Assembly: GCF_007997035.1 (NCBI RefSeq) | Contig: NZ_VOSS01000090.1 | Location: 1 to 64,000 of the forward strand | Length of the DNA: 64,000 nucleotides | Reading direction: 5' to 3' | Source of the DNA: Ralstonia sp. TCR112 | GTDB lineage: Bacteria > Pseudomonadota > Gammaproteobacteria > Burkholderiales > Burkholderiaceae | Part shown: piece after piece, positions 11,813 through 46,530 of the stretch | How the letters are laid out: each line of letters opens with the position of its first letter | Numbering within the stretch: the first letter of the stretch is position 1 | The notes under the pieces: model-generated | What the model saw: the letters and a program-made list of their open reading frames with translations, nothing else | The model's database searches: none | Told to the model about the DNA's origin: nothing | Made by a program: the position numbers and the translations under genes

Positions 11813-13048
11813 CTACTTTGACATGCCGCCCTGGCCGGAAGGGCGTAACGGCAGACGCCAGAGGTCGTAACGTTCTTCGCCGGCCTTGACCATGCCCGCG
11901 AAGTGCAGGTTCAGGCGGCTGGCAGTCACCACCAGAGCGCCGTCGGGAGCGATCGTCGGCGTATCGGGCCAGGAGACGTCTTCATCGGTCGCTACCAGTG
12001 CCATCGCCTTCGTGGCAGGGTCGTACCGCACGATGCCGTTGCGTGTGACGTCGGTGATGTACAGCCGGCCGTCGGCGCCGGTGGCAATGCCATCCGTGTT
12101 GCCGCCCACGTCGCCAAGGTGTTGCACGGCGGCGGCGACCTCCGCGCGATTGGCCTTCGGGTTGCGAAGCACGTGCGTGGCAATCGCATGCGCGTGCCGG
12201 CCCGTGGTGACGGTCCAATACAGCGTGCGGGCATCGGGCGAGAGCGCGATGCCGTTGATGCCCAGGACCAGCGGCTTGCCTGGCCAGACTTCCGTGCCGT
12301 GCGACATGACCTTGGCGCCCGGTTCGGGCATCAGACTCGGATGCCGATCGAGCAGGCGGCGCGCACGGCCCGACGTGAAATCCACGACGATCAGCGCCGC
12401 CTGGTTGGCGGGTGCACTGCGCAGGCCGCTGTCCGACACGTAGGCGACCTTGCGGGCTTCATCGACGACGATGTCATTGAGGAAGCTCGCCTTGCGGTCT
12501 GCCACGGAATCGAGGCCGATACGCTTGATCAGGCGGCCGGTGTCGAGGGCATACACCATGATCTTCTGCGCGCCTGCGGGGGCTTCGGTCTCGCCGGCCA
12601 CGAAGCCCTGGTCCAGGGCCCACAGCCAACCGTTGCGCCGATCGATGTAGAAGCCGAGCACGTTGCGAAGGTGCTGGTCCGGCGCACCGGCCACGGCATT
12701 GCCCTCGGTGGACGGAAACGCCGTCAGCCGTGCCGGCCCCGAGGCGGTGCGGGTGTCCAGCACGCTCAACGTGGCCGGCGCATCCGCAGACACCAGCCGT
12801 GGCGTGCTGACAAACGCGCGTCCTTGCACGTCGAAGTGGATGCCTGCAATCGGTGCGTTGACCGAGCCTGCATCGGCTGCGGCGTTGCCCTCGTCGTCGG
12901 CAGCGGCCCAGGTCACGCCCGTATAGCTGCGCCAGCGTTCAAGCGATGCACGCTCGGCCGCCTGCGCGGGCTGCACCGCCGCGGCTGCCGTGCTGCAGGC
13001 GAGCGCTGCCAGCAGCGCGGCAGCCAGGGTGAGGCGATAGCGATTCAT
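11813..13048 (-). CDS. Secreted L-dopachrome tautomerase-related (royal-jelly-type) propeller protein
   Basis: A 411-residue exported protein with a signal peptide (LTLAAALLAALACSTAAAA) and a single six-bladed propeller resembling the major royal jelly protein / L-dopachrome tautomerase-related family. Typical segments are GIHFDVQGRAFVSTPR, GFYIDRRNGWLWALDQG, LNDIVVDEARKVAYVSDSG, GINGIALSPDARTLYWT and GNTDGIATGADGRLYITD. SMP-30/gluconolactonase is the alternative fold reading. Substrate unknown. It is the last gene of a leftward cluster (DJ-1, SDR, this) facing a LysR regulator. Confidence 0.8.
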   Translation of the reverse strand: MNRYRLTLAAALLAALACSTAAAAVQPAQAAERASLERWRSYTGVTWAAADDEGNAAADAGSVNAPIAGIHFDVQGRAFVSTPRLVSADAPATLSVLDTRTASGPARLTAFPSTEGNAVAGAPDQHLRNVLGFYIDRRNGWLWALDQGFVAGETEAPAGAQKIMVYALDTGRLIKRIGLDSVADRKASFLNDIVVDEARKVAYVSDSGLRSAPANQAALIVVDFTSGRARRLLDRHPSLMPEPGAKVMSHGTEVWPGKPLVLGINGIALSPDARTLYWTVTTGRHAHAIATHVLRNPKANRAEVAAAVQHLGDVGGNTDGIATGADGRLYITDVTRNGIVRYDPATKAMALVATDEDVSWPDTPTIAPDGALVVTASRLNLHFAGMVKAGEERYDLWRLPLRPSGQGGMSK

Positions 13049-31027: not shown

Positions 31028-31327
31028 TCACACACCGCAGATCGAACAGTGCTTTCCGCCGCAGACATGGAGGACGCTGTTGCGGCGGCCGGAGCCACCC
31101 GCGCTGCCCGGCCCGGTGATTGGTTTGCCCGCCAGCTGCTCATGCAGCGAACTGGGTTGCCAGCGTGAAACTGACTTCAATGCAACGCGCCCACCGGTCG
31201 GCATTGGCGCGGCGGGTGTGTCTTCGTCGCAGTAGGGGCAGGGTGTGGGCGCGTGCAGTTTCGCAGCCGGAATCAGCCGTTCGAAAATGCCGTCGCAAGC
31301 GGTACAGCGGATGTCGTATAGCGGCAT
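31028..31327 (-). CDS. fmdB: FmdB-family zinc-ribbon protein
   Basis: A 99-residue small regulator-like protein. It opens MPLYDIRCTACDGIFERLI, with a zinc ribbon built from CTAC and CPYC pairs as in FmdB/CxxC_CxxC_SSSS proteins. A second Cys/His-rich tail (VCGGKHCSICGV) is at the C-terminus. FmdB was described as a regulator in the formamidase operon of Methylophilus methylotrophus. It is the last gene of the leftward urt-amiE-fmdA-fmdB operon; the ATG at 31327 has GGAGG. Confidence 0.85.
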   Translation of the reverse strand: MPLYDIRCTACDGIFERLIPAAKLHAPTPCPYCDEDTPAAPMPTGGRVALKSVSRWQPSSLHEQLAGKPITGPGSAGGSGRRNSVLHVCGGKHCSICGV

Positions 31328-31393: not shown

Positions 31394-32575
31394 TCAAGCG
31401 GGCTTGCGGCCCCAGTGCGATTTGTCGTTCAGCATGCCCTTGGGGGTGATGTCCTGGTCGAAGATCGCCGTGGGAATCGACACCGTGCACGCGCAGTTCG
31501 GGATGTCCACGATGCCGCCGATGCGCCCCTCTACCGGCGCGGCCGTCAGCAGCATGTAGGCCTGGCTGGCGCTGAAACCAAAGTGCGTGAGGTAGTCGAT
31601 GGCTTTCAGGCACGCCTGCCGATACGCGACGGTGGCATCCAGGTAGTAGTTGGTGCCGTTTTCCACGCTGATGCCCTCGAAGGTCAGCCATTGGTCGTAG
31701 CGCGGCTTGACGGGGCTGGGCATGAAGATCGGCGCGCTCAAGTTGTACTTGGCCATGCCGCCCTTGATGAGGTCGAACCCGACGCGCGTGGCGCCGTCCA
31801 TTTCGATCGCGCCGCAGAAGCCGATTTCGCCGTCGCCCTGGGAGAAGTGCAGGTCGCCCATCGAGAAGCCGGCCCCTTTGACGTACACCGGGAAGAAGAT
31901 GCGGGTGCCGATCGACAGGTCCTTGATGTCGGTGTTGCCGCCGTGCTCGCGTGGCGGCACCGTGCGCGCGGCCTCGCCTGCCATGCGATCGAATTCCGCG
32001 CCGGACACGCCGCGCAGCACGGCGGTGCGCGGGTCGGGCGGCTGGGCCAGGCCCTTGGCGGCCAGCGGTGCTTCACGGCGGTTCCATTCATCCAGCAGTT
32101 CGCGGGAGGGCAGGCAGCCCATCAACCCAGGGTGCGTCAGGCCTGCCAGCCGGACGCCGGGAATATGGCGCGACGTGGCATAGACGCCTTTCAAGTCCCA
32201 GATGGCCTTGTCGGCATCGGGAAAGTAATCCGCCAGGAAGCCGCCGCCGTTGGATTTTGCGAACACGCCCGAAAAGCCGATCGGCGTGACGGGCTTGATG
32301 TCGAGCAGGTCTACCACCAGCAGGTCGCCCGGCTCCGCGCCTTCAATGTAGAAGGGCCCCGTGAGTGGATGCGCGCGGGTCAGGTCGACATTGCGCACGT
32401 CGTCGACCTTGTCGTCGTCACGGATCTGCGCGTCGAGAAAATCCAGCGATTCGATGATGATCTCTTCACCGGGCTTGACCTTGGAAAGGAACGGGATGTC
32501 CGGATGCCAGCGGTTGTGGCCGAGTTCGGCCTGCTCTGCCAGCGGCTTGCCGGGCTGGATCTTGAAATGCTGCAT
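31394..32575 (-). CDS. fmdA: Formamidase
   Basis: Hydrolyses formamide to formate and ammonia. The 393-residue protein belongs to the acetamidase/formamidase family: QPGKPLAEQAELGHNRWHPD, LTGPFYIEGAEPGDLLVVDLL, HPGLMGCLPSRELLDEWNRR, MGDLHFSQGDGEIGFCGAIE, and a C-terminal NCACTVSIPTAIFDQDI. The ATG at 32575 follows GAGGAG. It sits between amiE and fmdB and is co-oriented with the urea/amide ABC transporter, so it uses imported amides as a nitrogen source. Confidence 0.95.
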   Translation of the reverse strand: MQHFKIQPGKPLAEQAELGHNRWHPDIPFLSKVKPGEEIIIESLDFLDAQIRDDDKVDDVRNVDLTRAHPLTGPFYIEGAEPGDLLVVDLLDIKPVTPIGFSGVFAKSNGGGFLADYFPDADKAIWDLKGVYATSRHIPGVRLAGLTHPGLMGCLPSRELLDEWNRREAPLAAKGLAQPPDPRTAVLRGVSGAEFDRMAGEAARTVPPREHGGNTDIKDLSIGTRIFFPVYVKGAGFSMGDLHFSQGDGEIGFCGAIEMDGATRVGFDLIKGGMAKYNLSAPIFMPSPVKPRYDQWLTFEGISVENGTNYYLDATVAYRQACLKAIDYLTHFGFSASQAYMLLTAAPVEGRIGGIVDIPNCACTVSIPTAIFDQDITPKGMLNDKSHWGRKPA

Positions 32576-32601: not shown

Positions 32602-33624
32602 TCAGGCGTGGGGGATGCCATCGATGGGGCATTCGGGCGTGCCGGCGGTGCGGCGGGTGAGGGCCTCGACCTGCGCGCGCGCGGCGGCCGGATCGTTCAC
32701 CCAGGTCTTGTAGAAATCGAAGGGGCAGGCGGCCACGCCTTCCGGTGCTTCTCCGGAGTTGATGGTGCCGGTGTAGCCGCGGTGCAGCAGCTTATAAAGA
32801 TGGTTTTGCGATTGCAGGTGCTTGCGCGCATCGCGGATCAGCCCGACCGACAGCTCGGCGTACTGGATGCCCATCTCTTCGGTGCCGCATTCGCCCAGCG
32901 TGCGGCCGTCGAATCCGACGATGGCCGAGTGCCCGAAGTACGAATACACGCCGTCGAAGCCGGCCGCGTTCGCCACGGCCACGTAGACGTTGTTCATCCA
33001 CGCCATGGCTTTGGACACCATCACCTGCTGCTCCTTGGCCGGATACATGTATCCCTGGCAGCGGACGATCAGCTCGGCGCCCTTCATGGCGCAGTCGCGC
33101 CAGATCTCGGGGTAGTTGCCGTCGTCGCAGATGATCAGGCTGATCTTCAGGCCCTTGGGGCCTTCCGATACGTAGGTGCAGCCGCCGGGGTACCAGCCTT
33201 CGATGGGGCACCACGGCATGATCTTGCGGTACTTCTGCACGATTTCACCCTGGTCGTTCATCAGGATGAGCGTGTTGTAGGGCGCCTTGTTGGGGTGGTC
33301 TTCATGGCGCTCGCCGGTGAGCGAGAACACGCCCCACACCTTCGCCTCGCGGCATGCCGCGGCAAAGATGGCGGTCTCGTCGCCGGGGATGGTGGCCGCC
33401 GTCTCGTACATCTCCGCAGCGTCGTACATGATCCCGTGCGTGGAGTATTCGGGAAACACCACGAGGTCCAGCCCGGGCAGACCTTGCTTCATGCCGACCA
33501 GCATCCGGCCGATGTTGCGCGCGTTCTCCAGCACCTCGGCGCGCGTGTGCAGGCGCGGCATCTTGTAGTTGACGACGGCCACGCCAACGCAGTCCTGGCT
33601 GCTTGAAATGTCCCCGTGACGCAT
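32602..33624 (-). CDS. amiE: Aliphatic amidase
   Basis: Hydrolyses short-chain amides such as acetamide to acid and ammonia. The 340-residue nitrilase-superfamily enzyme carries the triad at the same numbers as P. aeruginosa AmiE: Glu59 (VFPEYS), Lys134 (YRKIMPW) and Cys166 ([10 protein letters not shown]). The ATG at 33624 ([10 protein letters not shown]) has TAGGAG six bases upstream; the frame is open further upstream but the family begins here. It is 26 bp downstream of urtE in the same operon. Confidence 0.96.
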
Positions 33625-33649
33625 GCTTGCTCCTATGGTGTGAGATGAG

Positions 33650-34339
33650 TCAAACCGAGAGGTATCGGCTGATGGTGGCGGCATCGACCTTGTCGCGCGT
33701 TTCTTCGTAGACGAAGCGCCCTTTGTCGATGACGAGAAAGCGGTCGGCGATATCGAGGGTGAAGCTGAGCACCTGTTCCGACACGACGATGGTGAGCTGG
33801 CGGAGCTTGCGGATCTCCTTCAACGCCCGTGCGATGTCCTTGATGATCGACGGCTGGATGCCCTCGGTCGGCTCGTCCAGCAGCAAGACCTTCGGGTTGG
33901 TGGCCAATGCACGCGCAATGGCGAGCTGCTGTTGCTGGCCGCCGGACAGGTTCCCGCTCTTGCGCCCGCGCATGTCGTACAGCACGGGGAAGAGCGCATA
34001 CAGTTCGTCCGGCACGCGACCGCCCGCGGAGGCCGGCAGGCCGGTCTGGATGTTCTCCAGCACCGTCATGCTCGAGAACATCATGCGGCCCTGCGGCACG
34101 TAGGCGATGCCGCGCGCCACGCGCTGGAACGAGGGCAGGGCCGTCAGTTCCTGGCCGTCGATCGACACGCTGCCCGAGCGCGTCGGAAGAATGCCCATCA
34201 GGGTCTTGAACAGCGTGGTCTTGCCCATGCCGTTGCGGCCCATCACGGCCACGATCTCCTGCGGCGCCACCTGCAGGTTGAGGGCATGGAGCACCTGGCT
34301 CTGGCCGTATCCGGAAACGAGGTCGGTCACGTTGAACAT
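33650..34339 (-). CDS. urtE: Urea/amide ABC transporter ATP-binding subunit UrtE
   Basis: One of two ATPases of a branched-chain-type (HAAT family) importer. The 229-residue protein has Walker [10 protein letters not shown], signature [15 protein letters not shown], Walker [13 protein letters not shown] and a His switch region modified to VVSEQVL, as in LivF/UrtE proteins. It is 15 bp downstream of urtD. The operon context with amiE and fmdA makes short-chain amides as plausible a substrate as urea. Confidence 0.94.
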
Positions 34340-34354: not shown

Positions 34355-35116
34355 TCAATGGCCCAGATAGACTTCAATGACTTTCGGGTCGGCCTGCACC
34401 GCATCCATGCTGCCTTCGGCCAGCACCTTGCCCTGGTGCAGCACCGTCACGCGGTGGGCGATGCTCTTGACGAACTCCATGTCGTGCTCGATGACGAGCA
34501 CCGAGCGCCCCTGGCTGATGCGGCCGAGCAGTTCGGCTGTCTTCTCGCGTTCCGACACGCTCATGCCGGCAACGGGTTCATCGAGCATCACGAGTTCCGG
34601 CTCCTGCATGAGCAGCATGCCGATCTCCAGCCACTGCTTTTGCCCGTGCGAGAGCAGGTCCGCCTGCTGGTGCAGCAGCTCGTGCAGGAAGATGTCGCGG
34701 GCCACGGCTTCCACGCGTTCCACCACGTCGGGGGTGCGGCGGAAGGCGAGTGCGCCGAGCACCTTACGCCCGCGTGGAAACGACATCTCCAGGTTCTCGA
34801 ACACCGTCAGGTTTTCGTAGATGGACGGTGTCTGGAACTTGCGGCCGACACCCGAGCGCACGATGTCGTGCTCGCGCATCTTTGTCAGTTCCAGGTTGTT
34901 GAAGCGGATGCTGCCGGAGGTGGCGCGCGTCTTTCCGCAGATCAGGTCCAGCACCGTGGTCTTGCCCGCGCCGTTGGGGCCGATCACCACGCGCACTTCG
35001 TTGCGGTCTACGTACAGGTTCAGGCTGTCCACCGCCTTGAAGCCGTCGAACGACACCGTCAGGTCTTCGATCGCCAGCACGGGCTTGGGCATTTCCACGC
35101 CGATCGGTTGGGTCAT
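34355..35116 (-). CDS. urtD: Urea/amide ABC transporter ATP-binding subunit UrtD
   Basis: The second ATPase of the importer, LivG/UrtD type, 253 residues. Walker A is GPNGAGKTT, the signature is LSHGQKQWLEIGMLLMQEP (the LSHGQKQWLEIG form is diagnostic of UrtD), Walker B is LVMLDEPVAGMS and the switch His is in LVIEHDMEFV. The ATG at 35116 begins MTQPIGVEM; the same frame is open upstream through urtC but that is antisense-like noise. It lies 14 bp after urtC. Confidence 0.95.
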   Translation of the reverse strand: MTQPIGVEMPKPVLAIEDLTVSFDGFKAVDSLNLYVDRNEVRVVIGPNGAGKTTVLDLICGKTRATSGSIRFNNLELTKMREHDIVRSGVGRKFQTPSIYENLTVFENLEMSFPRGRKVLGALAFRRTPDVVERVEAVARDIFLHELLHQQADLLSHGQKQWLEIGMLLMQEPELVMLDEPVAGMSVSEREKTAELLGRISQGRSVLVIEHDMEFVKSIAHRVTVLHQGKVLAEGSMDAVQADPKVIEVYLGH

Positions 35117-35130
35117 GATGGTCTCCGGGT

Positions 35131-36267
35131 TTAGCCTTGCGCGGTGGCGCCGGGCGCCGGTTTTGCCGCCGCGCGGCGGCCTTGCAGCAGCCGTGCGATC
35201 CATTTGCGGCCGTGGCTGTCGTACAGGCCGGCCAGGCCGTTGGGGAAGTACATGACCACGGCGATGAACAGGCCGCCCATCAGGAACAGCCACAGCTGCG
35301 GGAAGGACTCGGAGAAATACGTCTTGCCGAAATTGACGAGCAGCGTGCCGTACACCGCGCCCAGCAGCGAGAGGCGTCCGCCCACCGCGGCATAGATGAC
35401 CATCTCGATCGACGGCACGATGCCGACGAACGACGGCGACATGAAGCCCACCTGCAGCGTGAACATCGCCCCGCCGATGGCCGACATGGCCGCCGCCACG
35501 CAGAACACGAACACCTTGAAGCTGGCGACGTCGTAACCGGAAAAGCGCACGCGCTCTTCCTTGTCGCGCATCGCCATCAGCAGGCGGCCGAGTTTGGAAC
35601 GCAGGATGAAGCGTCCGAGCACGATGCAGCCCACCAGCAGGCCGGCGGTGACGAAGTACAGGATCAGCTTGGCGGAGTCGGTGCGGATGTCCCAGCCGAG
35701 CAGCGTCTTCAGGTCGGTGATGCCGTTGACGCCGCCCGTCCAGCCCTGCTGCCCGATGATGAGGATCGACAGGATCGCCGCGATGGCCTGCGTGACGATG
35801 GAAAAATACACATCGCCCACGCGCCGCTTGAACATGGCGATGCCGATCAGCAACGCAAGCAGCGTGGGCACCAGCACCACCGCGACCACCGCGAAGCCGA
35901 AGTGGCGGAACGGCTCCCAGAACAACGGCAGGGCGGTCAGCTGGTTCCAATCCATGAAGTCGGGAATGCCGGGCGTCGACTGGATCTTGGTGCTGACCGG
36001 GTCGGAGGCTTCCAGCTTGAGGAACATCGCCATGCAATAACCGCCGAGCCCGAAGAACACGCCCTGGCCGAGGCTCAGGATGCCGCCGTAGCCCCAGCAC
36101 AGCACCAGGCCGACGGCCACGAAGGCGTAGCTGAGGTACTTGCCGATCAGGTTCAGGCGGAACACGTCGAACGCCAGCGGCATGACGACGAAGATGACGG
36201 CGCAGAGTACGGCCAGGCCGAGCCAGTCGCGCCTGCGCTCTAGCCATGAGTGAAGCGTGGGGTTCAT
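35131..36267 (-). CDS. urtC: Urea/amide ABC transporter permease UrtC
   Basis: A 378-residue LivM-type permease with about ten hydrophobic segments (for example WLGLAVLCAVIFVVMPLAFD, FVAVGLVLCWGYGGILSLGQ, VFFGLGGYCMAMFLKL, LILYFVTAGLLVGCIVLGRF, LWLFLMGGLFIAVVMYFPNG). The EAA-like loop follows RLLMAMRDKEERVRFSGYDV. It ends with a basic cytoplasmic tail. It is 10 bp downstream of urtB. Confidence 0.95.
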   Translation of the reverse strand: MNPTLHSWLERRRDWLGLAVLCAVIFVVMPLAFDVFRLNLIGKYLSYAFVAVGLVLCWGYGGILSLGQGVFFGLGGYCMAMFLKLEASDPVSTKIQSTPGIPDFMDWNQLTALPLFWEPFRHFGFAVVAVVLVPTLLALLIGIAMFKRRVGDVYFSIVTQAIAAILSILIIGQQGWTGGVNGITDLKTLLGWDIRTDSAKLILYFVTAGLLVGCIVLGRFILRSKLGRLLMAMRDKEERVRFSGYDVASFKVFVFCVAAAMSAIGGAMFTLQVGFMSPSFVGIVPSIEMVIYAAVGGRLSLLGAVYGTLLVNFGKTYFSESFPQLWLFLMGGLFIAVVMYFPNGLAGLYDSHGRKWIARLLQGRRAAAKPAPGATAQG

Positions 36268-36277
36268 GTCGGACTCC

Positions 36278-37195
36278 TTATTTGCGGACCTTGACCGAGA
36301 ACAGCCCCTGGGGCCGCATCATCAGGATCAGGATCACGGCCGAGAGCGTCAGCACCTTGGCCATCGAGCCTGTGAGGAAGAACTCGGTGGTCGATTGCGT
36401 CTGGGCGATGGTGAAGGCCGACGCGATGGTGCCCAGCAGGCTTTGCGCGCCGCCGAACACCACCACCAGGAAGGTGTCGACGATGTACAGCGACCCCGAA
36501 GTCGGGCCGGTCGAACCGATGGTGGTAAATGCGGCTCCCGCCACCCCGGCCACGCCGCAACCCAGGGCGAAGGTCATGCGGTCGACGCGCCGTGTGTCGA
36601 TGCCCACCGCACCGCTCATCACGCGGTTCTGCACCGTGGCACGCACCTGAAGACCCCAGCGCGAGCGGAACAGCAGCAGGAACAGCGCCCCGGTCAGCAG
36701 CGTGGTCAGCGCCATCACGAAGAGGCCGTTGATCGGGATATCGATGCCGCCGCCGGGCGAGAACGATCCCATCAGCCAGTCGGGCAGCGCCGGGCTGACT
36801 TCCTTGGCGCCGAAGATGGAGCGGAAAGCTTGCTGCATGGCCAGGCTCAGGCCCCAGGTGGCGAGCAGTGTGTCGAGCGGGCGGTTGTAAAGCCGCGAGA
36901 TCATCAACCGCTCGACTGCGTAACCGATAGCCGCTGCCAGGACGAACGACAGCACCACGGCCGCGAAGAAGTAGTAAGGCTGCAGTGCCGGCGCGTAGCT
37001 CGCGGTGAGCGTTGACAGTAGGTACGTGGTGTACGCGCCGATGGTGAGAAACTCGCCATGGGCCATGTTGATCACGCCCATCTGCCCAAAGATGATGGCC
37101 AGGCCGAGTGCCATCAGCAGCAGCACGCAGAAGAACGACAGGCCGTTGAAGCCCTGCATGGCGAAGATCGCCCCGAATTCCGACAACGAGGTCAT
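36278..37195 (-). CDS. urtB: Urea/amide ABC transporter permease UrtB
   Basis: A 305-residue LivH-type permease with about eight membrane segments: FNGLSFFCVLLLMALGLAII, MGVINMAHGEFLTIGAYTTY, a TWGLSLAMQQAFRSIFGAKE loop, TLLTGALFLLLFRSRWGLQV, then ATVQNRVMSGAVGIDTRRVD. It is the short form; many UrtB proteins carry an extra N-terminal periplasmic domain that is absent here. The ATG at 37195 (MTSLSEFGAI) follows GGAGCC. It is 87 bp from urtA. Confidence 0.93.
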   Translation of the reverse strand: MTSLSEFGAIFAMQGFNGLSFFCVLLLMALGLAIIFGQMGVINMAHGEFLTIGAYTTYLLSTLTASYAPALQPYYFFAAVVLSFVLAAAIGYAVERLMISRLYNRPLDTLLATWGLSLAMQQAFRSIFGAKEVSPALPDWLMGSFSPGGGIDIPINGLFVMALTTLLTGALFLLLFRSRWGLQVRATVQNRVMSGAVGIDTRRVDRMTFALGCGVAGVAGAAFTTIGSTGPTSGSLYIVDTFLVVVFGGAQSLLGTIASAFTIAQTQSTTEFFLTGSMAKVLTLSAVILILMMRPQGLFSVKVRK

Positions 37196-37282: not shown

Positions 37283-38518
37283 TTACTGGTAACCCTTCGG
37301 GAACGGATTCGGTTCGATCAGACCGGACTCGTAGACCACCTTGAACTGGCCGTCCGTCTGCACTTGCCCGATGCGCGTCTTGCTCCACAGGTGGTGGTTG
37401 GCGTGCACCTTCACGTAGCCTTCCGGCGCGGTGTTCAGCTCGATGCCGGGCGAGGCCGCGACCACCTTGTCGACGTCAAAACTGCCGGCCTTTTCCACCG
37501 CCGCCTTCCACAGCCACGGGCCGAGGTAAGCCGCCTGCGTGACGTCGCCGATGACGGCCTTGGCGCCGTACTTGGCCTTGAAGGCCTCGACGAATTTCTT
37601 GTTGTTGGGGTTGTCCAGGCTCTGGAAGTACTTCATGGAGGCGTAGAAGCCGGCCATGTTCTCGCCGCCGATACCGAGCAGTTCATCCTCCGTGACGGAC
37701 AGCGTCAGCAGCGTCTGCTTGTCGGCGGTCACGCCCGCTGCCTTCATCTGCTTGTAGAAGGCCACGTTGGAGCCGCCCACCACAGCGGCAAAAATCACGT
37801 CAGGCTTCTTCAGCTTCATCTTGTTGATCAGCGAGCCAAACTGCGTGTTGCCGAGCGGGTAGTACTCCTCGCCGACCACCTCGCCGTGCAGCACGTTTTC
37901 GATGTGCTTGCGCGCGATCTTCATCGACGTGCGCGGCCAGATGTAATCGGAGCCGACCAGATAGAACGTCTTGGCCTTCTTCTCCTTGGCCACCCAATCC
38001 AGCCCGGCCAGGATCTGCTGCGTGGCTTCCTGCCCCGTGTAGATCACGTTCTTGGATTGCTCGAGCCCCTCGTAGAACGTGGGGTAGTACAGCAGGCCGT
38101 TGTCTTTCTCGAACACCGGCAGCACGGCCTTGCGCGAGGCCGACGTCCAGCAGCCGAACACGGTGGCGACACGGTCAGCTTCGAGCAGCTTCTTCGCCTT
38201 CTCGGCGAAGGTCGGCCAATCCGATGCGCCGTCCTCCTGGATGATCTTGATCTTGCGCCCCAGCACGCCGCCCGCAGCATTGATCTGGTCGATTGCCAGG
38301 CGCTCTGCCTGGATCGATCCGGTCTCGCTGATCGCCATGGTGCCGGTGGCCGAATGCAGTTGGCCCACGGTGACCTCGGTGTCGGTCACGGCAAGCTTGG
38401 TGGCATTGACCTTGGCGGTCGGGTACGACTGCGCGAGCGCGGCGAGCGGCGCCGCCAGCAGAGGCGTGACGGCAAGACACAAGGCGAGGCGCCGAAGGCG
38501 CGAGGGGTGGCGTGACAT
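37283..38518 (-). CDS. urtA: Urea/amide ABC transporter substrate-binding protein UrtA
   Basis: A 411-residue periplasmic binding protein. The signal peptide (RLALCLAVTPLLAAPLAALA) is cleaved before QSYPTAKVN. The mature part has type I periplasmic-fold segments typical of UrtA/FmdD: VGQLHSATGTMAISETGSIQ, FGCWTSASRKAVLPVFE, LLYYPTFYEGLEQSKNVIYT, and the C-terminal NHHLWSKTRIGQVQTDGQF. It is the first gene of the leftward operon, with GGGAGAAACCACG before the ATG at 38518. Urea versus small amides cannot be separated from sequence alone. Confidence 0.94.
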   Translation of the reverse strand: MSRHPSRLRRLALCLAVTPLLAAPLAALAQSYPTAKVNATKLAVTDTEVTVGQLHSATGTMAISETGSIQAERLAIDQINAAGGVLGRKIKIIQEDGASDWPTFAEKAKKLLEADRVATVFGCWTSASRKAVLPVFEKDNGLLYYPTFYEGLEQSKNVIYTGQEATQQILAGLDWVAKEKKAKTFYLVGSDYIWPRTSMKIARKHIENVLHGEVVGEEYYPLGNTQFGSLINKMKLKKPDVIFAAVVGGSNVAFYKQMKAAGVTADKQTLLTLSVTEDELLGIGGENMAGFYASMKYFQSLDNPNNKKFVEAFKAKYGAKAVIGDVTQAAYLGPWLWKAAVEKAGSFDVDKVVAASPGIELNTAPEGYVKVHANHHLWSKTRIGQVQTDGQFKVVYESGLIEPNPFPKGYQ

Positions 38519-38599
38519 CGTGGTTTCTCCCGGTTGCGGATGGTGGTCGGTGTGAACAGGCATGGAGGCAAGCCTAGGCGGGGGCCTCGATTGCCGGAA

Positions 38600-38615
38600 T
38601 ACGTCAACCGACGTA
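38600..38615. promoter_or_regulatory. Inverted repeat TACGTC-N4-GACGTA in the urtA / sensor-kinase divergent promoter
   Basis: TACGTCAACCGACGTA is a perfect 6-bp dyad with a 4-base centre, 82 bp upstream of urtA and 167 bp upstream of the kinase gene. TAC...GTA half-sites suit NarL/LuxR-type response regulators, and one is encoded downstream of the kinase at 42160. The link is inferred. Confidence 0.6.
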
Positions 38616-38781
38616 CAACGCGGCCGCATTGCACGGCGCAGCCATCCGCAATCAAAAACACAGCGGCATCACGACAGTGAACCGGCCGAGTGCGAGGGCG
38701 GAACGGAACTTGCATCGCCCGCCGCGCCTACTCGCCTAGAGCACGAAGCTCAGGCGCGGTTCACCGAAACGGGGAGCGTTC

Positions 38782-41700
38782 GTGCACCAATCCGGCACCC
38801 AGCGCATCGTCAAGATCCGTCGTGACTACAACACGTGGGTCGCCGACGAGACGCTGGAAGACTACGCATTGCGCTATACGCCGCGCGGATTCCGCAAATG
38901 GTCGGAATTCCGCGTGGCCAACACCGCGCTGGGAGCCACGTCGTTCCTGGCGCTGGAGGCCATTGGCGGTTCGCTCGCCATCAACTACGGCTTTACCAAC
39001 GCGTTCTGGGCGATCGTGGTGGTGAGCGTGCTGATCTTCTTGACCGGCCTGCCGATCAGCTATTACGCAGCGCGCTTCGGCGTCGACATGGATTTGCTCA
39101 CGCGCGGCGCCGGCTTCGGCTACATCGGCTCGACGGTCACCTCGCTTGTGTATGCGACCTTCACGTTCATCTTCCTGGCGCTGGAGGCGGCCATCATGGC
39201 GCTGGCCGTGCAGCTTTACGTCGGGCTGCCCCTGCCCATCGCCTATGTGCTGTGCTCGCTGGTGATCATCCCGCTGGTGACGCACGGCATCACGGCCATC
39301 AACAAGCTGCAGAGCTGGACCCAGGTGCTGTGGCTCGTGTTGCTGGTGCTGCCCTACGCTGCGGTGCTGCTGCGCAATCCGCGCGCGTTTGCCGACTGGC
39401 CGAGCTTTGGCGGCCTGTCGGAATCGGGCCGCGATTTCAACCTGCTGGCCTTTGGCGCCGGCTGCACCGTGGCCTTTGCGCTGATCGTGCAGATTGGCGA
39501 GCAGGTCGACTACCTGCGCTTCCTGCCCGAAAAGACGCGCGCCAACCGCGGCAAGTGGTGGCTGGCACTGCTGGCGGCAGGCCCCGGTTGGGTGGTGCCT
39601 GGCGCGCTGAAAATGCTGGGCGGTTCCTTTCTGGTCTTCCTCGCCGTTCAGCACGAGGTGGGCACGGCGCGCGCGTGGAGCCCACGCAGATGTACCTGGT
39701 GGCCTATCAGTATGTGTTCGGCTCGCCTGCATTGGCGATGGCGGCCATGGCGTTGTTCGTGGTGGTGTCGCAGATCAAGATCAACGTCACCAACGCCTAC
39801 GCCGGTTCACTGGCATGGTCCAACTTCTTTGCGCGCCTCACGCACAGTCATCCGGGCCGGGTGGTGTGGCTCGTCTTCAACGTACTGATCGCACTGCTGC
39901 TGATGGAGCTGGGCGTGTTCGAGGCGCTGAGCGAAGTGCTGGCGCTGTACGCCAACGTCGCCATCGCCTGGATCGGCGCGCTCGTGGCGGACCTCGTCAT
40001 CAACAAGCCGTTGGGATACAGCCCCGCACACATCGAGTTCAAGCGCGCTTACCTGTACGACGTCAATCCGGTTGGCGTGGGCGCCATGCTGATTGCCTCG
40101 GTGGTCGCGACGCTTGCTCACCTCGGGTTGTTCGGTGCCGTGACCGAAGCGCTGTCGCCGTTCGTCGCATTGGGCATGGCGTTCCTTTGCGCGCCGCTCA
40201 TCGCCGTGGCCACGCGCGGGCGGTTCTACCTCGCCCGCAAGGTGCACGCGCCCGCCGACGCCGAACATGCGCACGCCGGCGCCATGCGTTGCGTCATCTG
40301 CGAGAACGTGTTCGAGCGAGAAGACATGGCGCATTGCCCCGCCTACGCCGGCAGCATCTGCTCGCTGTGCTGCTCGCTGGACGCGCGCTGCGGCGATGCC
40401 TGCAAGCCGCACGGCCGACTGTCTGCGCAAATCGCACAGGCTTGGCGGCATTGGTTTCCAAACACTGAACTGCCGCGACTGCACGTGCGTGTGGCGCAGT
40501 ACGCCGCCGTGCTGCTGATCGTGCTGGGCTTGTTGGCAGGCGTACTGACGCTGATCTACTACCAGACCGCCGTCACGCTGAGCGCGGACCAATCGCCGTT
40601 GCAATTGCTGGCGCGCGGTTACATCAAGGCGTTCTTTGCGCTGGCGCTGGTCGGCTGCGTGGGCGCCTGGTGGCTGGTGCTTGCCAAGGAAAGTCGCAAG
40701 GTCGCGCAGGAAGAGTCCAACCGCCAGACCATGCTGCTGATGCGCGAAATCGAAGCGCACCGCAAGACCGACGCCATGCTGCAGCAGGCCAAGCAAGCCG
40801 CCGAGTCTGCCAACCGGGCCAAGAGCCGCTACGTGACTGGCTTGAGCCACGAACTGCGCACGCCGCTCAACAGCATCCTTGGCTATGCGCAACTGCTGAT
40901 GCGCGATCCGTCGATGGCACCGGCGCGCCGCGAAGGCCTGGCCACCATCTTCCGCAGCGGCGAGCACTTGCTGGCCCTGGTCGATGGGCTGCTGGACGTG
41001 GCACGCATCGAGGCCGGCAAGCTGCAACTCGACGTGAGCCAGGTGGCGTTTCCAGCGTTCCTCACGCAGATCGAAGCGATGATGGAGCCGCATGCCTCGG
41101 AAAAAGGACTGGCCTTCCGCATGGAGCATGTAGGCCGCATTCCCGACGCGGTGCGCATGGACGAAAAGCGTGTGCGCCAGATCCTGATCAATCTGCTGGG
41201 CAACGCGGTGCGGTTTACCGAGAGCGGCACGGTGTCGCTGCGTGTGGCCTACGCGCGTGAGCTGGCGACCTTCGAAATTCTCGATACCGGCATCGGCATT
41301 GCCTCGGACGAGCTGGAACGCATCTTCCTGCCCTTCGAACGCGGCGCCGCAGCGCACGCGCAGGACAACGGCGCCGGCCTCGGCTTGACCATCTGCCGCA
41401 TGCTCACCACGCTGATGGGCGGCCAGCTGAGCGTGGACAGTGTGCCCGGCGAAGGTACGCGCTTTACCGTGCGGTTGTTCCTGCCGGAGGTGCGCGAGCC
41501 CCGCGCGGTCGACCGCATCCGTCATGTCAGCGGCTATCGCGGTGCGCGGCGGACCGTGCTGGTGGTGGATGACCAACGCGAGCAGCGCCGTATCGTGGTG
41601 GGCGCGCTCGCGCCGCTGGGCTTCACGCTCGTCGAAGCCGCCAGCGGGCCCGAGGCGATGCGCCAGCTCGGCACGCTGCAGGTCGACCTGATCGTGATGG

Positions 41701-42179
41701 ACGTGTCGATGCCATCGATGGACGGCTTCGAGGCCAGCCGGCTGATCCGCAGGCAGGCACTCAGTGTTGCGCCGATCCTGGTGTTGTCGGCCAATGCGTT
41801 TGCGGGTGACCGCGCGCGCGGTGCCGCCGCCGGCTGCGATGACTACCTTGCCAAGCCCGTCCACCTGCCGCATCTGCTCGACAAAGTGGGCGAGTTGCTC
41901 AACCTCGAATGGATCGTCGACAGCGAAGCAGGTGCGGAAGCGCCGCCGCCGGCACGCTCGCACGCGCCGCTGCCGGCCGAGCTGGTCGCACAGTTGCGGC
42001 CGTTGCTCGAGATCGGTTACATCCGCGGGCTCATCGAATTGCTGGACGAAGCCGAACATCGCCATCCTGACCTTGCCGGCGCGCTGCAACCTGTGCGATC
42101 GGCCGCGCGGCGCTTCCGATTGACTGAACTGGATAGGTTGCTCAAAGGAGCCCCTTCAGATGAACACAGCGTGGATTGA
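38782..42179 (+). CDS. NCS1-permease / Cys-rich / hybrid histidine kinase fusion, apparent frameshift near 39675
   Basis: A very large sensor of about 1,132 residues once one base is restored. Residues 1-~300 read in one frame: an NCS1 (nucleobase-cation symporter-like) permease, with NTWVADETLEDYALRYTPRG and many membrane helices. After the GC-rich run at 39667-39675 the permease continues in another frame (VEPTQMYLVAYQYVFG, VSQIKINVTNAYAGSLAWSN). Then come a Cys-rich cluster (bases 40290-40405: CVICENVFERED, ICSLCCSLDARCGDACK), two more helices, a coiled coil, HisKA (His in LSHELRTPLNS, codon 40848), HATPase, a receiver (Asp in VMDVSMPSMDG, codon 41700) and a C-terminal helical domain. The start is GTG with GGGGAG. 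It pairs with the regulator it overlaps. Confidence 0.85.
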
Positions 42180-43146
42180 CCATGGCAGCGCGGCGGCGCT
42201 GCATCTGCCATCGGCTCCGCAGACGATCGGTGCGGCCGCTGGGGGTTCCGGCGTCGTGCTCATCGTCGACGATACGCCGGACAATCTGGCGTTGCTGTCC
42301 GATGCGCTCGACGCCGTCGGCTACACCGTGCTGGTGGCGCTGGACGGCCCCAGCGCACTCGATCGCATCGAGCGTCTGACGCCCGACATCATCCTGCTGG
42401 ACGCCGTCATGCCCGGCATCAGCGGCTTCGAGACCTGTGAGCACATCAAGGCCAATGCGCGCCACGCGCAGATTCCCGTGATCTTCATGACGGGACTGAC
42501 GGAGAGCGAGCATGTTGTGCGCGGCTTCCGTGCCGGCGGGATCGACTACATCACCAAGCCGATCCGCCCCGAAGAGGTGCTCGCGCGCGTCGCCGCGCAT
42601 CTGGAGCGCGCCCGTGCGCACCGGCAGGCAGACGAAATCGTTGGCCTGGGCGGCCGTGCGGCGCTGGTGGCCGATGTGCACGGCGCGATCCACTGGCGCA
42701 GCTCGCGGGTCGCGCCGTTGTTTGCGCGCTTCTATCCGGACCACGGCGACATGCAGCGGCTGCCGCCGGTATTGCAGCAGTGGCTGGCGCAGAGCGTGCG
42801 GCCCGTCGGCGTACCCGAAGCCGGCCGGATGGCGGAAGACGGTGAGGGCGTGCGGCTGGTGGCAAGGCTGGCTGGCCCCGCGCCGCACAGCGCATGGGTC
42901 ATCCAGTTGGAAGAGCACGACGACCGCAAGGTGAGCGATCGCCTTTGCGCAAGGTTTCGTCTGACCGCACGCGAGGCCGAGGTGCTGCTGTGGATTTCAC
43001 GCGGCAAGACCAACCGCGACATCGGCGACATCCTCGGTATGCGGCCGCGTACCGTCAACAAGCATCTCGAGCACATCTTCGAGAAGCTTGGTGTGGAAAC
43101 GCGCGCGGCTGCTGCTGCGCTGGCTTTGCAGGCTCAGCCGGGTTGA
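42160..43146 (+). CDS. Response regulator with NarL/LuxR-type DNA-binding domain
   Basis: A 328-residue regulator: receiver (about 32-150, LIVDDTPDN, phospho-acceptor Asp81 in LLDAVMPGISG, Lys in YITKPIRPEE), a linker domain of about 100 residues, and a GerE helix-turn-helix (about 262-322: LTAREAEVLLWISRGKTNRD, MRPRTVNKHLEHIFEKLGVE). Its start overlaps the kinase gene by 20 bases, so the pair is co-translated. The probable target is the divergent urt-amidase operon through the dyad at 38600. Confidence 0.93.
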   Translation: MNTAWIDHGSAAALHLPSAPQTIGAAAGGSGVVLIVDDTPDNLALLSDALDAVGYTVLVALDGPSALDRIERLTPDIILLDAVMPGISGFETCEHIKANARHAQIPVIFMTGLTESEHVVRGFRAGGIDYITKPIRPEEVLARVAAHLERARAHRQADEIVGLGGRAALVADVHGAIHWRSSRVAPLFARFYPDHGDMQRLPPVLQQWLAQSVRPVGVPEAGRMAEDGEGVRLVARLAGPAPHSAWVIQLEEHDDRKVSDRLCARFRLTAREAEVLLWISRGKTNRDIGDILGMRPRTVNKHLEHIFEKLGVETRAAAAALALQAQPG

Positions 43147-44102: not shown

Positions 44103-45464
44103 TCACTGTGTGCTGGCAAGCGGCACCCGCCGCGTTGCGATGGTGTACAGGACCGCGCTGGCAAGCGCAGACACGCCGCCGACCAGCGCTAGCGCCATGC
44201 CCAAACTGGTGCCAGTTTGCCCCAGGCGCTCGTTCAGGTAACCGACCGACAGCGGCCCGACGCCACCGCTGATCGCGTTGGTCATGAACACCAGCAAGGC
44301 GAGCGACCGGCCGCGCATGCGGTTTGGCATGGCGATTTGCAGCGGCACGGGCGCCAGGCCCATCGCAATGCTGGCGGCAAACGCGCAGGCGCCGTAAAGC
44401 ACCACGGCCACACTGCTCTCACCCACCAGCGGCATCGCGATGGCCGCAGGCACCAAGATCGCAACAGCGCAGGCCGAGAAGGCCAATACGCGCCGCAAGG
44501 CCGTCTCGTCAGTCACGCGCGTGGCCAGCATGCCGGCGCACGCGACCCCGAGCATGCCACCGATCATGTAAGCGGGCGCCGCCATCTGGCCGACCACATT
44601 GGGCGCGAGATGAAACCGGCGCATCAGCAGTGTCGGAAATCATGCAGCGTGCGAATAGAACAGCGTGATCAGCGCGACATACGCGGCAAAGTACGCCAGA
44701 CAGAAGCGGTTGCGCACGAACAGCTCGCTCAGCACGTCTTTGAGCGATGGCACCTCGTCTTCGGCGCGCGCGGCGTGGGCCTGGACTTCGCGCCGCTGCG
44801 GCTCACGTACGGTCAGGGCGACGAGCGCAGCGAGCGCGAGCCCGGGGAGGCCCACCGCGATGAACACGGCCTGCCAGGGCGCGATGTCGTGCGCCGCCAG
44901 CCAGGCGCTTCCGCTGCCGGCCGCGGCCGCCGACAACAGCATGCCGCCGCCAAACAGCGCCAGGCCGCCGCCCACGTACGGCCCGAGCATGAAGACGCTG
45001 CTGGCACGCGCGACGCGGCGCGGCGCAAAGATGTCGCTGAAGATCGACAGTGCAGCGGGGCTTAACGCCGCTTCGGCAATGGCGGTGCCGGCACGCGCTA
45101 CGAGCAGCTCCGGAAAGTTCGTCGCGAACCCGCATGCGGTGGTCGAGATCGCCCAGATGGCGATGCACGCCGCGATCAACTTGACGCGATTGGCCCGGTC
45201 GACAAGTCGCGCGACAAACACGCCCGCCGTCGCATAGCACATCGTGAAGGAGAAGCCTTGCAGCAAGCCGATCTGCGTGTCGCTCAGCGCAAGCGACTGT
45301 TTGATCGGCTGCACGAGGATGCTGACGACCTGCCGGTCCAGGTACGAGAAGGCAAAGCACACAAAGAACAGCAGGACGATGTAGACGGGGTGGCCGACAT
45401 TGCCGGCCGCACGCAGCGGCGCAACGTCGTCGGGCGGCTCCGTTGAAAGGGTCTGGGTACGCAT
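44103..45464 (-). pseudogene. MFS transporter (spinster-like) interrupted by an in-frame TGA
   Basis: The major-facilitator gene would encode 453 residues with 12 helices. The first 274 (HPVYIVLLFFVCFAFSYLDR, QGFSFTMCYATAGVFVARLV, and on to LITLFYSHAA) end at TGA (bases 44642-44640). The same frame continues FPTLLMRRFHLAPNVVGQMA to 44103 with the last five helices. The family has Trp at this point (SHAAWFPTLL), so one C-to-T change on the plus strand (TGG to TGA) explains it; there is no length change. The product as read would be non-functional. The ATG at 45464 follows GGAGACC. Confidence 0.85.
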
Positions 45465-45513
45465 CGTGGTCTCCGTATTGTTATGTGGCGAGGTCAACCG
45501 AATGGTTGCCCGC

Positions 45514-46530
45514 TCAATCGAGATGGGCTTCCGAGGCGAGCAGGGCGATGCAGTCGCCCGGCTCCACGCGTGCAAACGTGCGCATGCACATGACCGTGCC
45601 GTCGCCGGCGAACGTGATGTTCTCGGGGGCTGCCCACGGGCGGTGCGGATCGAAAAGCCGCCCGGCGAGTTGACCGGCGCGGACTTGGTCGCCCAGGGCG
45701 AAGGTCGGCTCGAAGACGCCCGCATGCGGTGCGTACACGTAATGGCGCGCGCCTTCCACGCGCAGGAAGCGCGTCTGTTTTGGCGCTGGCACGGCCGGCT
45801 CCGGCATCACGCCAAGCCGATGCAGCACGCGCTGCAGGCCGGCTTCGACGATCGCAAGGTTGCCGGCGTCGCAGCCGGCATGGCCGCCAAACTCTCCGCA
45901 GAAGAACAACTTGCCGTGGCGCTCGGCGGCAGCGGCGAAGGTCCGGTCTTCGCCAAGCAGATCCATGATCATGGTGTGCGGTGCGCCAAAGTCGCGCACC
46001 AGATCCAGGTACAGCGCGCGTTGTTCACCGTGCGCCGGCGGGGACGCCAGCAGCGTTGGCAGGTGATCGAACGATGCGCCGCCCGCATGGAGGTCGATCA
46101 CGACATCTGCACGCGGCAGCAGTTCGGTCTCGACATAGTGCGCAATCATTTCGGTCGGCTGCCCGTTGCGCGCACCAGGAAACATGCGGTTCAGGTTGCC
46201 CCGGTCGACGGGGGACGTGCGCGAGCCGTTGAGGAAGGCCGGGAAATTCAGCCCCGGAATCACGATCAGGCGGCCGCGCGTCGCCATGGACGGCAGCCGC
46301 TGCAGTAACTTCATCAGGGCGACGGGGCCTTCGTATTCGTCTCCATGATTTCCGCCAGTCAGCAGCACAGTCGGGCCGGTCCCTTCGCCGGCATTGCACA
46401 CCGCAATGGGGATCGGAATATGCCCGTAGGCGGAGCGGTCATGTGACCACGGCAGGCGCAGCGTTCCGGTCTGGAAGCCGACGCGTTCGAAGTCGATGTC
46501 GGTGGCGATGAGCGAGGCAGACGTTGTCAT
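45514..46530 (-). CDS. Succinylglutamate desuccinylase/aspartoacylase-family deacylase (DoeB-like)
   Basis: A 338-residue zinc hydrolase. Metal ligands are His and Glu in GGNHGDEYEG and a later His in VIDLHAGGASFDHL; SRTSPVDRGNLNRMFPGARN is the substrate loop shared with DoeB (N-alpha-acetyl-diaminobutyrate deacetylase of ectoine breakdown) and related enzymes. A biotinyl-like C-terminal strand region (FEPTFALGDQVRAGQLAGRL, VEPGDCIALL) follows. No other ectoine gene is nearby, so the substrate stays open. It is upstream of, and co-directional with, the broken MFS transporter, its likely uptake partner. Confidence 0.83.
   Translation of the reverse strand: MTTSASLIATDIDFERVGFQTGTLRLPWSHDRSAYGHIPIPIAVCNAGEGTGPTVLLTGGNHGDEYEGPVALMKLLQRLPSMATRGRLIVIPGLNFPAFLNGSRTSPVDRGNLNRMFPGARNGQPTEMIAHYVETELLPRADVVIDLHAGGASFDHLPTLLASPPAHGEQRALYLDLVRDFGAPHTMIMDLLGEDRTFAAAAERHGKLFFCGEFGGHAGCDAGNLAIVEAGLQRVLHRLGVMPEPAVPAPKQTRFLRVEGARHYVYAPHAGVFEPTFALGDQVRAGQLAGRLFDPHRPWAAPENITFAGDGTVMCMRTFARVEPGDCIALLASEAHLD

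What the first reader, a model, noticed from the sequence alone, without database searches (positions are those of the whole stretch)
38519..43146. Permease-Cys cluster-histidine kinase sensor divergently paired with a urea/amide uptake and amidase operon
The kinase uses a whole NCS1-type permease as its input domain, then a compact cluster of about nine Cys (40290-40405), two more helices and a full hybrid kinase. It is coupled by a 20-base overlap to a NarL-type regulator and faces urtABCDE-amiE-fmdAB. Carrier-kinase fusions are known (for example CbrA-type SLC5 sensors), but an NCS1 carrier plus a Cys cluster controlling amide/urea use is, as far as I know, little described. The carrier could report amide or nucleobase flux, with the Cys cluster as a metal or redox gate.
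Basis: partly seen in the sequence, partly recalled or inferred. Interest (0 to 1): 0.78.

Follow-up and report, generated by a model that had tools for sequence, protein, structure and literature searches.

The report
Carrier-like sensor for urea and amides
Many bacteria use a membrane protein built from a nutrient carrier, a cysteine-rich knot and a signalling kinase, apparently to detect urea or small amides and switch on the genes that take them up and break them down; the copy in this window is interrupted in its reading frame.

Summary

Urea/amide genes (urt, urease, amiE, fmdA) lie within 12 kb of the carrier in 41 of 50 (order), 11 of 18 (class) and 43 of 45 (phylum) loci, but 0 of 11 cyanobacterial loci. 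New: a palindrome, TACGTC-N4-GACGTA (window 38600-38615), lies between urtA and the kinase; its relaxed form is in 108 of 118 such regions against 14 of 590 random windows. Five of six kinase-free relatives of the carrier sit near formamidase, amidase or urease genes. In a 59-row tree all sensors lie on one side of a well-supported branch, with swapped outputs.

Best reading: a short-chain amide/urea carrier turned receptor ("transceptor") that induces its operon through that palindrome. Ligand, transport, metal and DNA binding are untested.

The parts
38782..39690 (+). 5' part of the sensor gene: N-terminus and roughly the first half of the NCS1-type carrier (frame 1); frame is lost about here
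   Evidence: single open frame in L010/L011; single-base gap near 39670 against both
39675..42179 (+). 3' part of the sensor gene in another frame: second half of carrier, Cys domain, TM hairpin, HisKA, HATPase_c, REC, conserved C-terminal tail
40290..40403 (+). eight-cysteine domain C-x2-C-x11-C-x7-C-x2-CC-x5-C-x3-C, predicted cytosolic
   Evidence: pattern in 203/203 distinct fused ORFs; topology by hydropathy and charge of 48 relatives
40490..40690 (+). two extra transmembrane helices (hairpin) before the kinase; limits approximate
   Evidence: hydropathy over 48 relatives; helices 558-591 and 597-669 in the L015 model
40818..41888 (+). HisKA (about 40818-41018), HATPase_c (41160-41483) and REC (41556-41888) domains
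   Evidence: Pfam
42160..43146 (+). NarL-type response regulator (REC + GerE), overlapping the kinase by 20 bases
   Evidence: a homologue within 12 kb in 47/50 order, 14/18 class and 43/45 phylum loci
38519..38781 (.). divergent promoter region between urtA and the sensor gene
38600..38615 (.). palindrome TACGTCAACCGACGTA, candidate operator of the response regulator
37283..38518 (-). urtA, urea/amide-type ABC substrate-binding protein (start chosen by eye at the signal peptide)
   Evidence: TIGR03407 over cut-off
36278..37195 (-). urtB permease (by position and by similarity to annotated urtB in relatives; start by eye)
35131..36267 (-). urtC permease (by position and similarity)
34355..35116 (-). 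urtD ATPase (by position and similarity; start by eye)
33650..34339 (-). urtE ATPase
   Evidence: TIGR03410 over cut-off
32602..33684 (-). amiE, aliphatic amidase (ORF limits; the true start may lie inside)
   Evidence: NF009802 aliphatic amidase, E 9e-215, over cut-off
31394..32575 (-). fmdA, formamidase/acetamidase
   Evidence: PF03069; NF045496 over cut-off
31028..31327 (-). fmdB-type zinc ribbon protein
   Evidence: TIGR02605 over cut-off

Best explanation
The intact form is a transceptor. A 12-helix NCS1-type (LeuT-fold) carrier of the short-chain amide/urea kind binds, and may or may not transport, its substrate. Its conformational change passes through the cytosolic eight-Cys domain and a two-helix hairpin, whose second helix runs on towards the kinase dimerisation helix. 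The hybrid kinase then signals to the adjacent NarL-type regulator, which binds the palindrome TACGTC-N4-GACGTA between the two divergent genes and activates urtABCDE-amiE-fmdAB (uptake and hydrolysis of urea, formamide and acetamide). Shown here: anatomy, fold class of a homologue, gene linkage, the palindrome and its association with the kinase, and kinase-free carriers near amide or urea genes. Inferred: ligand, direction of signalling, regulator binding to the palindrome, and the Cys domain as a zinc-type structural coupler. In the sequenced window the gene is interrupted, so the pathway is either inactive in that strain or the break is a sequencing error.
Against: No ligand, binding or expression data. 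9/50 order and 7/18 class loci have none of these genes within 12 kb (some lie on short contigs) and neither do 11/11 cyanobacterial loci. One sits by genes that look like nifHDK (L134), another by xanthine-dehydrogenase-family genes (L008). The window copy itself is broken. One kinase-negative genome (G040) has a very similar urtA without kinase or palindrome beside it, so the operon can run without it; the other ten kinase-negative controls have a more distant UrtA. Ten of 118 divergent regions lack even the relaxed palindrome, and only 1 of 7 urease-only loci has it. The palindrome could bind another protein. The cited growth and induction phenotypes were not tied to this kinase.
Confidence: 0.7

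Rival explanations
1. General nitrogen-status or nucleobase/allantoin sensor: the carrier recognises a cytosine-, hydantoin- or allantoin-like ligand and the urt-amide operon is one of several nitrogen targets.
For: Closest solved folds are the cytosine carrier CodB and Mhp1, solved with a hydantoin; some loci lie beside xanthine-dehydrogenase-family or nif-like genes; one kinase-free carrier is annotated 'allantoin permease'.
Against: In the proteobacterial samples the usual neighbours are urea/amide genes; five of six kinase-free carriers sit near fmdA, amiE or urease. The strict palindrome occurs 3 times in 5.4 Mb of the own genome, equal to its reversed control; the two other sites matched none of 12 local query proteins and were not annotated further, so a wide regulon is not indicated but not excluded.
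Confidence: 0.12
2. The eight-Cys domain is the main input (Fe-S or zinc redox/metal switch) and the carrier domain is a membrane anchor or transporter that modulates it.
For: Eight-Cys pattern in 203/203 distinct fused ORFs; the domain lies between carrier and kinase.
Against: Two of four kinase-free carriers keep all eight Cys and two keep a four-Cys core. The weak hints are zinc-finger-like (2 of 10 members touch Prok-RING_1, best E 0.018; PDB hits cover 12-16 residues). Long carrier stretches are also strongly conserved.
Confidence: 0.1
3. In this strain the locus is a decaying pseudogene: the kinase is dead and urt-amiE-fmdAB is unregulated or controlled by other nitrogen regulators.
For: Frame break near 39,680 absent from both relatives; an MFS gene at 44103-45725 also looks interrupted in the window; only 3 of 16 genus genomes, own included, carry the gene.
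Against: The rest of kinase, regulator, palindrome and operon look intact; a single-base gap in a GC-rich run of a 292-contig draft may be a sequencing error. Not in conflict with the general model.
Confidence: 0.35
4. The protein is chiefly a working amide/urea transporter and the kinase reports flux through it, so it is needed for uptake as well as sensing.
For: Carrier motifs, including the acidic DYLRF region, are kept in the sensors; in L326 a kinase-free paralogue is present and no urt gene is listed in the stretch shown.
Against: Most sensor loci sampled also carry an ABC transporter (38/50 order, 39/45 phylum); no transport data.
Confidence: 0.25

Closest known systems
CbrA and CrbS (SLC5/STAC sensor kinases)
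   Same: Solute-carrier domain fused to a histidine kinase; CrbR, the partner of CrbS, needs an imperfect inverted repeat in its target promoters (PMC5715377 passages; PMC9100948 passages; PMC13022988 passages).
   Different: The carrier here matches NCS1 folds (CodB, Mhp1) better than SLC5 folds; an eight-Cys domain and TM hairpin lie where STAC would be; different palindrome; urea/amide rather than acetate or histidine genes.
Ammonium sensor/transducer of Kuenenia stuttgartiensis
   Same: Ammonium-transporter domain fused to a histidine kinase (PMC5764959, search listing and abstract start).
   Different: Unrelated carrier family (my knowledge); ammonium rather than urea/amides.
CodB and Mhp1 (NCS1 carriers)
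   Same: Fold over about 390-434 aligned residues; about 12 helices.
   Different: 15-17% identity; plain carriers without kinase (my knowledge).
fmdCABDEF of Methylophilus methylotrophus and amiE-fmdA-fmdB-urtABCDE of Pseudomonas veronii
   Same: Same kind of uptake/hydrolysis operon; [quoted passage not shown]
   Different: 'Histidine kinase' does not occur in either main text.
UTS cassette (UrtABC/AmiF) of Klebsiella pneumoniae CG307
   Same: Probably the cassette of L329: formamidase-urtEDCBA divergent from a fused carrier-kinase (PMC13060141 passages).
   Different: 'Histidine kinase' and 'two-component' do not occur in that paper's main text; identity of the two cassettes was not tested.

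Membership tests
NCS1 (nucleobase-cation-symport-1) carriers | NCS1/LeuT fold | tested here: met
NCS1 (nucleobase-cation-symport-1) carriers | Sequence-profile relation over the whole carrier | tested here: met
   hhalign over 409-417 columns, E 6.9e-12 (kinase-free) and 2.9e-10 (fused), probability about 97%
NCS1 (nucleobase-cation-symport-1) carriers | Match to PF02133 over its cut-off | tested here: inconclusive
   0 of 48 fused members match; of 4 kinase-free carriers only L166 does, 31.8 against 23.5 bits
NCS1 (nucleobase-cation-symport-1) carriers | Cation-coupled transport of substrate | not testable with these tools
   needs uptake assays
SLC5/STAC sensor kinases | SLC5 (SSF) carrier domain | tested here: inconclusive
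SLC5/STAC sensor kinases | STAC domain between carrier and kinase | not tested
   no STAC profile was run by name; the place is taken by the Cys domain and hairpin
Hybrid histidine kinases | HisKA + HATPase_c + REC | tested here: met
   Pfam over cut-offs (for the window; L010)
NarL/FixJ-type response regulators | REC + GerE | tested here: met
NarL/FixJ-type response regulators | Binds the conserved palindrome | not testable with these tools
   association only
Urea/short-chain amide ABC operon | UrtA/UrtE with amidase and formamidase | tested here: met
   NCBIfam over cut-offs for UrtA, UrtE, aliphatic amidase, formamidase and the FmdB zinc ribbon

The most novel reading that the evidence does not exclude
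A widespread, unnamed class of transceptors. An ancestral short-chain amide/urea carrier of the NCS1 fold, already bearing its own zinc-type Cys domain, was captured once as a sensory module and then paired with different outputs (several histidine-kinase types and a GGDEF-EAL protein). In Proteobacteria it works with a dedicated NarL-type regulator and the palindrome TACGTC-N4-GACGTA, and would be the missing inducer sensor of urea/formamide/acetamide operons. The kinase-free carriers would be a new family of amide/urea carriers.
Probability: 0.6. Interest if true: 0.8.

Novelty: new variant of a known kind. Interest (0 to 1): 0.73.

Why it matters
It would supply a sensor for urea/formamide/acetamide operons that lack AmiC/AmiR, add a new carrier class to the few known carrier-kinase fusions, and give a natural series (free carrier, fused sensor, several outputs) to ask how a transporter becomes a receptor. 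The palindrome makes this directly testable with one promoter fusion. Forms of the locus recur on Paraburkholderia, Roseomonas, Methylovirgula, Sinorhizobium and Klebsiella replicons.

Tried and rejected
PDB sequence search with the sensor profile: nothing at E up to 1. The Cys-domain profile gave only short zinc-finger stretches and two weak Pfam families; its model region has pLDDT of roughly 50-65, so its fold is left open. A wide regulon in the own genome: not indicated (3 strict sites, as many as the control); relaxed sites were not counted there. Programmed frameshifting: rejected, because both relatives are in one frame. Loci from outside the window's class first seemed to lack the palindrome; several have TACGC-N6-GCGTA in the same region. 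Among 37 urtA genes not scored as divergent-adjacent, 16 had the relaxed form (some are ORF-start artefacts). Of seven urease-only loci (one kinase-free) only L147 had it anywhere in the stretch. A motif for the C-terminal tail was too loose to use (116 of 184). The Fisher test used wrong counts and is replaced. Literature: nine searches, of which I saw the capped listings, showed no paper on an NCS1-kinase fusion or on this regulator; subscription papers are mostly not held. Foldseek itself was not obtained.
Full report
What is in the window. The kinase region reads as two overlapping frames, not one. The first (38782 to about 39690) holds the N-terminus and first half of a carrier; the second (about 39675 to 42179) holds the rest of the carrier, an eight-Cys stretch (40290-40403), two hydrophobic helices, HisKA, HATPase_c and REC. 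Of 16 genomes of the genus (own included) 3 carry the gene; the two others have a single frame at the same locus, 99% identical in the carrier part searched. The window differs from both by a single-base gap there. Whether this is a true loss or an error in a 292-contig draft cannot be told. The regulator (42160-43146) overlaps the kinase by 20 bases and is REC + GerE. Divergently lie urtA to urtE, amiE, fmdA and fmdB; UrtA, UrtE, AmiE, FmdA and the FmdB ribbon pass NCBIfam cut-offs, while urtB, urtC and urtD are named by position and by annotated relatives.

Cys domain. The eight-Cys pattern is present in 203 of 203 distinct fused ORFs and 2 of 4 kinase-free carriers; the other two keep a CxxC...CxxC core. 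The domain has no convincing Pfam or PDB match. I favour a zinc-type structural coupler; this is inference.

Spread. Sampled genomes: 18 of 369 in the class, 50 of 300 in the order, 52 of 398 in the phylum (with a kinase-free query profile) and 12 of 292 in the phylum of Elainella saxicola, a cyanobacterium by my knowledge. I fetched surroundings for the order and class hits, for 45 further phylum loci (the remaining phylum positives were already held) and for 11 cyanobacterial loci.

Neighbours within 12 kb. Order sample: 41 of 50 carrier loci have urt, urease, amiE or fmdA (urt 38, urease 18, fmdA 26, amiE 12). Class sample: 11 of 18. Best-80 set: 79 of 81 carrier ORFs, a set biased to close relatives. 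Phylum set: 43 of 45, the two misses being at contig ends. Cyanobacteria: 0 of 11, although Elainella itself (L086) has fmdA near a kinase-free copy. Two sampled loci held kinase but no carrier and were not counted (L142, L175). The misses include a locus by genes that look like nifHDK (L134) and others with no clear theme. Outside these samples, Azospirillum ramasamyi (L008) has the kinase and regulator beside xanthine-dehydrogenase-family genes.

Co-occurrence. Among 150 order genomes searched with the window's UrtA, 53 match. Of the 19 with identity of 70% or more, 18 carry the kinase (the exception is G040). Of the other 34, 7 carry it (Fisher p 1.7e-7; genomes related by descent are not independent).

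Operator. In the region upstream of kinases with a divergent urtA, TACGT-N6-ACGTA occurs in 95 of 118 loci; of the spacings 2 to 11 tried, only one other hit was seen; letter shuffles average 0.15 of 118, and 3 of 118 random windows contain it. Relaxed to TACG-N8-CGTA it is in 108 of 118; other spacings from 2 to 14 have 0-2; 14 of 590 random windows. These loci include near-copies; among distinct loci of the genome samples it is 35 of 44. In 82 carrier loci without a divergent urtA, 13 have the strict and 18 the relaxed form. The window site is 38600-38615. Among 30 urtA loci kept, all 9 beside the kinase have the strict form, and none of 11 from kinase-negative genomes do; ten of those 11 have lower-identity UrtA, so G040 is the only close control. 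In S. meliloti pSymB, where the kinase is about 8 kb away, the relaxed palindrome is before urtA; in Methylovirgula pHY1 it is between fmdA and the kinase and again before amiE. Binding by the regulator is inferred.

Kinase-free carriers and other outputs. Six kinase-free carriers were looked at: L086 (fmdA nearby), L165 (fmdA and amiE downstream) and L166 (in a urease cluster); L326 (between the kinase/regulator pair and amiE, with fmdA across and no urt listed in the stretch) and L327 (divergent from fmdA); L159 has no such neighbour on its 8-kb contig. They are rare: none of the ORFs listed for the 398-genome phylum sample is shorter than 894 codons apart from the broken window copy. Other sensors carry a kinase without REC (L080, L085, L086, and the cyanobacterial ones read), a short kinase near fmdA (L243, L252), PAS-HK-REC-HPt (L125) and a similar HK-REC form read by eye (L126), PAS-HK-REC (L181) or PAS-GGDEF-EAL (L180). 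In a tree of 59 carrier domains the four kinase-free rows used lie on one side of a branch (99*) and all sensors on the other, with 7 changes for 8 architectures, the least possible (quick method, root chosen by me). This fits a single capture of the carrier followed by output changes.

Reading. These facts fit an amide/urea carrier used as the receptor of a dedicated two-component system. From papers: the M. [quoted passage not shown] a Pseudomonas veronii strain with the same kind of chromosomal operon and no amiC/amiR there uses acetamide and formamide, but it also has a plasmid amiE-amiC-amiR operon, so the phenotype cannot be assigned (passages only). A Klebsiella urea-transport cassette discussed for urinary isolates resembles L329; the words histidine kinase and two-component do not occur in that paper's main text. 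Nine searches of open papers, seen as capped listings, showed no description of this sensor. Ligand, transport, metal content and regulator binding remain to be measured.

Noticed in passing
window 44103-45725 (-): An MFS transporter gene appears as two ORFs in the window but as one 567-codon frame in the same-genus relative L010; one search shows no gap there against L010, so a substitution is likelier than an indel.
   Followed up: partly
L329:5885-15357 (Klebsiella pneumoniae IncFIB plasmid): Formamidase-urtEDCBA divergent from the carrier-kinase, relaxed palindrome at 11855. Of 521 plasmid records matching the carrier query, 340 are Klebsiella; only this one was opened, and no regulator is listed in its incomplete gene table.
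   Followed up: partly
L180:7352-11020 (-): The same carrier-Cys module fused to PAS-GGDEF-EAL, so the input may also drive cyclic-di-GMP turnover in some bacteria.
   Followed up: partly
L227-L237: Cyanobacterial sensors with the same carrier-Cys module and another kind of kinase, none near urea or amide genes by this test; their role is unknown.
   Followed up: partly
L134:4128-8209 (-): Genes that look like nifH, nifD and nifK directly beside one carrier-kinase (named by eye).
   Followed up: no
L326:11560: A second relaxed palindrome about 140 bases before amiE, suggesting a second target of the same regulator.
   Followed up: partly
window 41889-42176 (+): A C-terminal tail after REC with a conserved Gly-Tyr-x2-Gly (invariant in the six proteins); function unknown.
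   Followed up: partly
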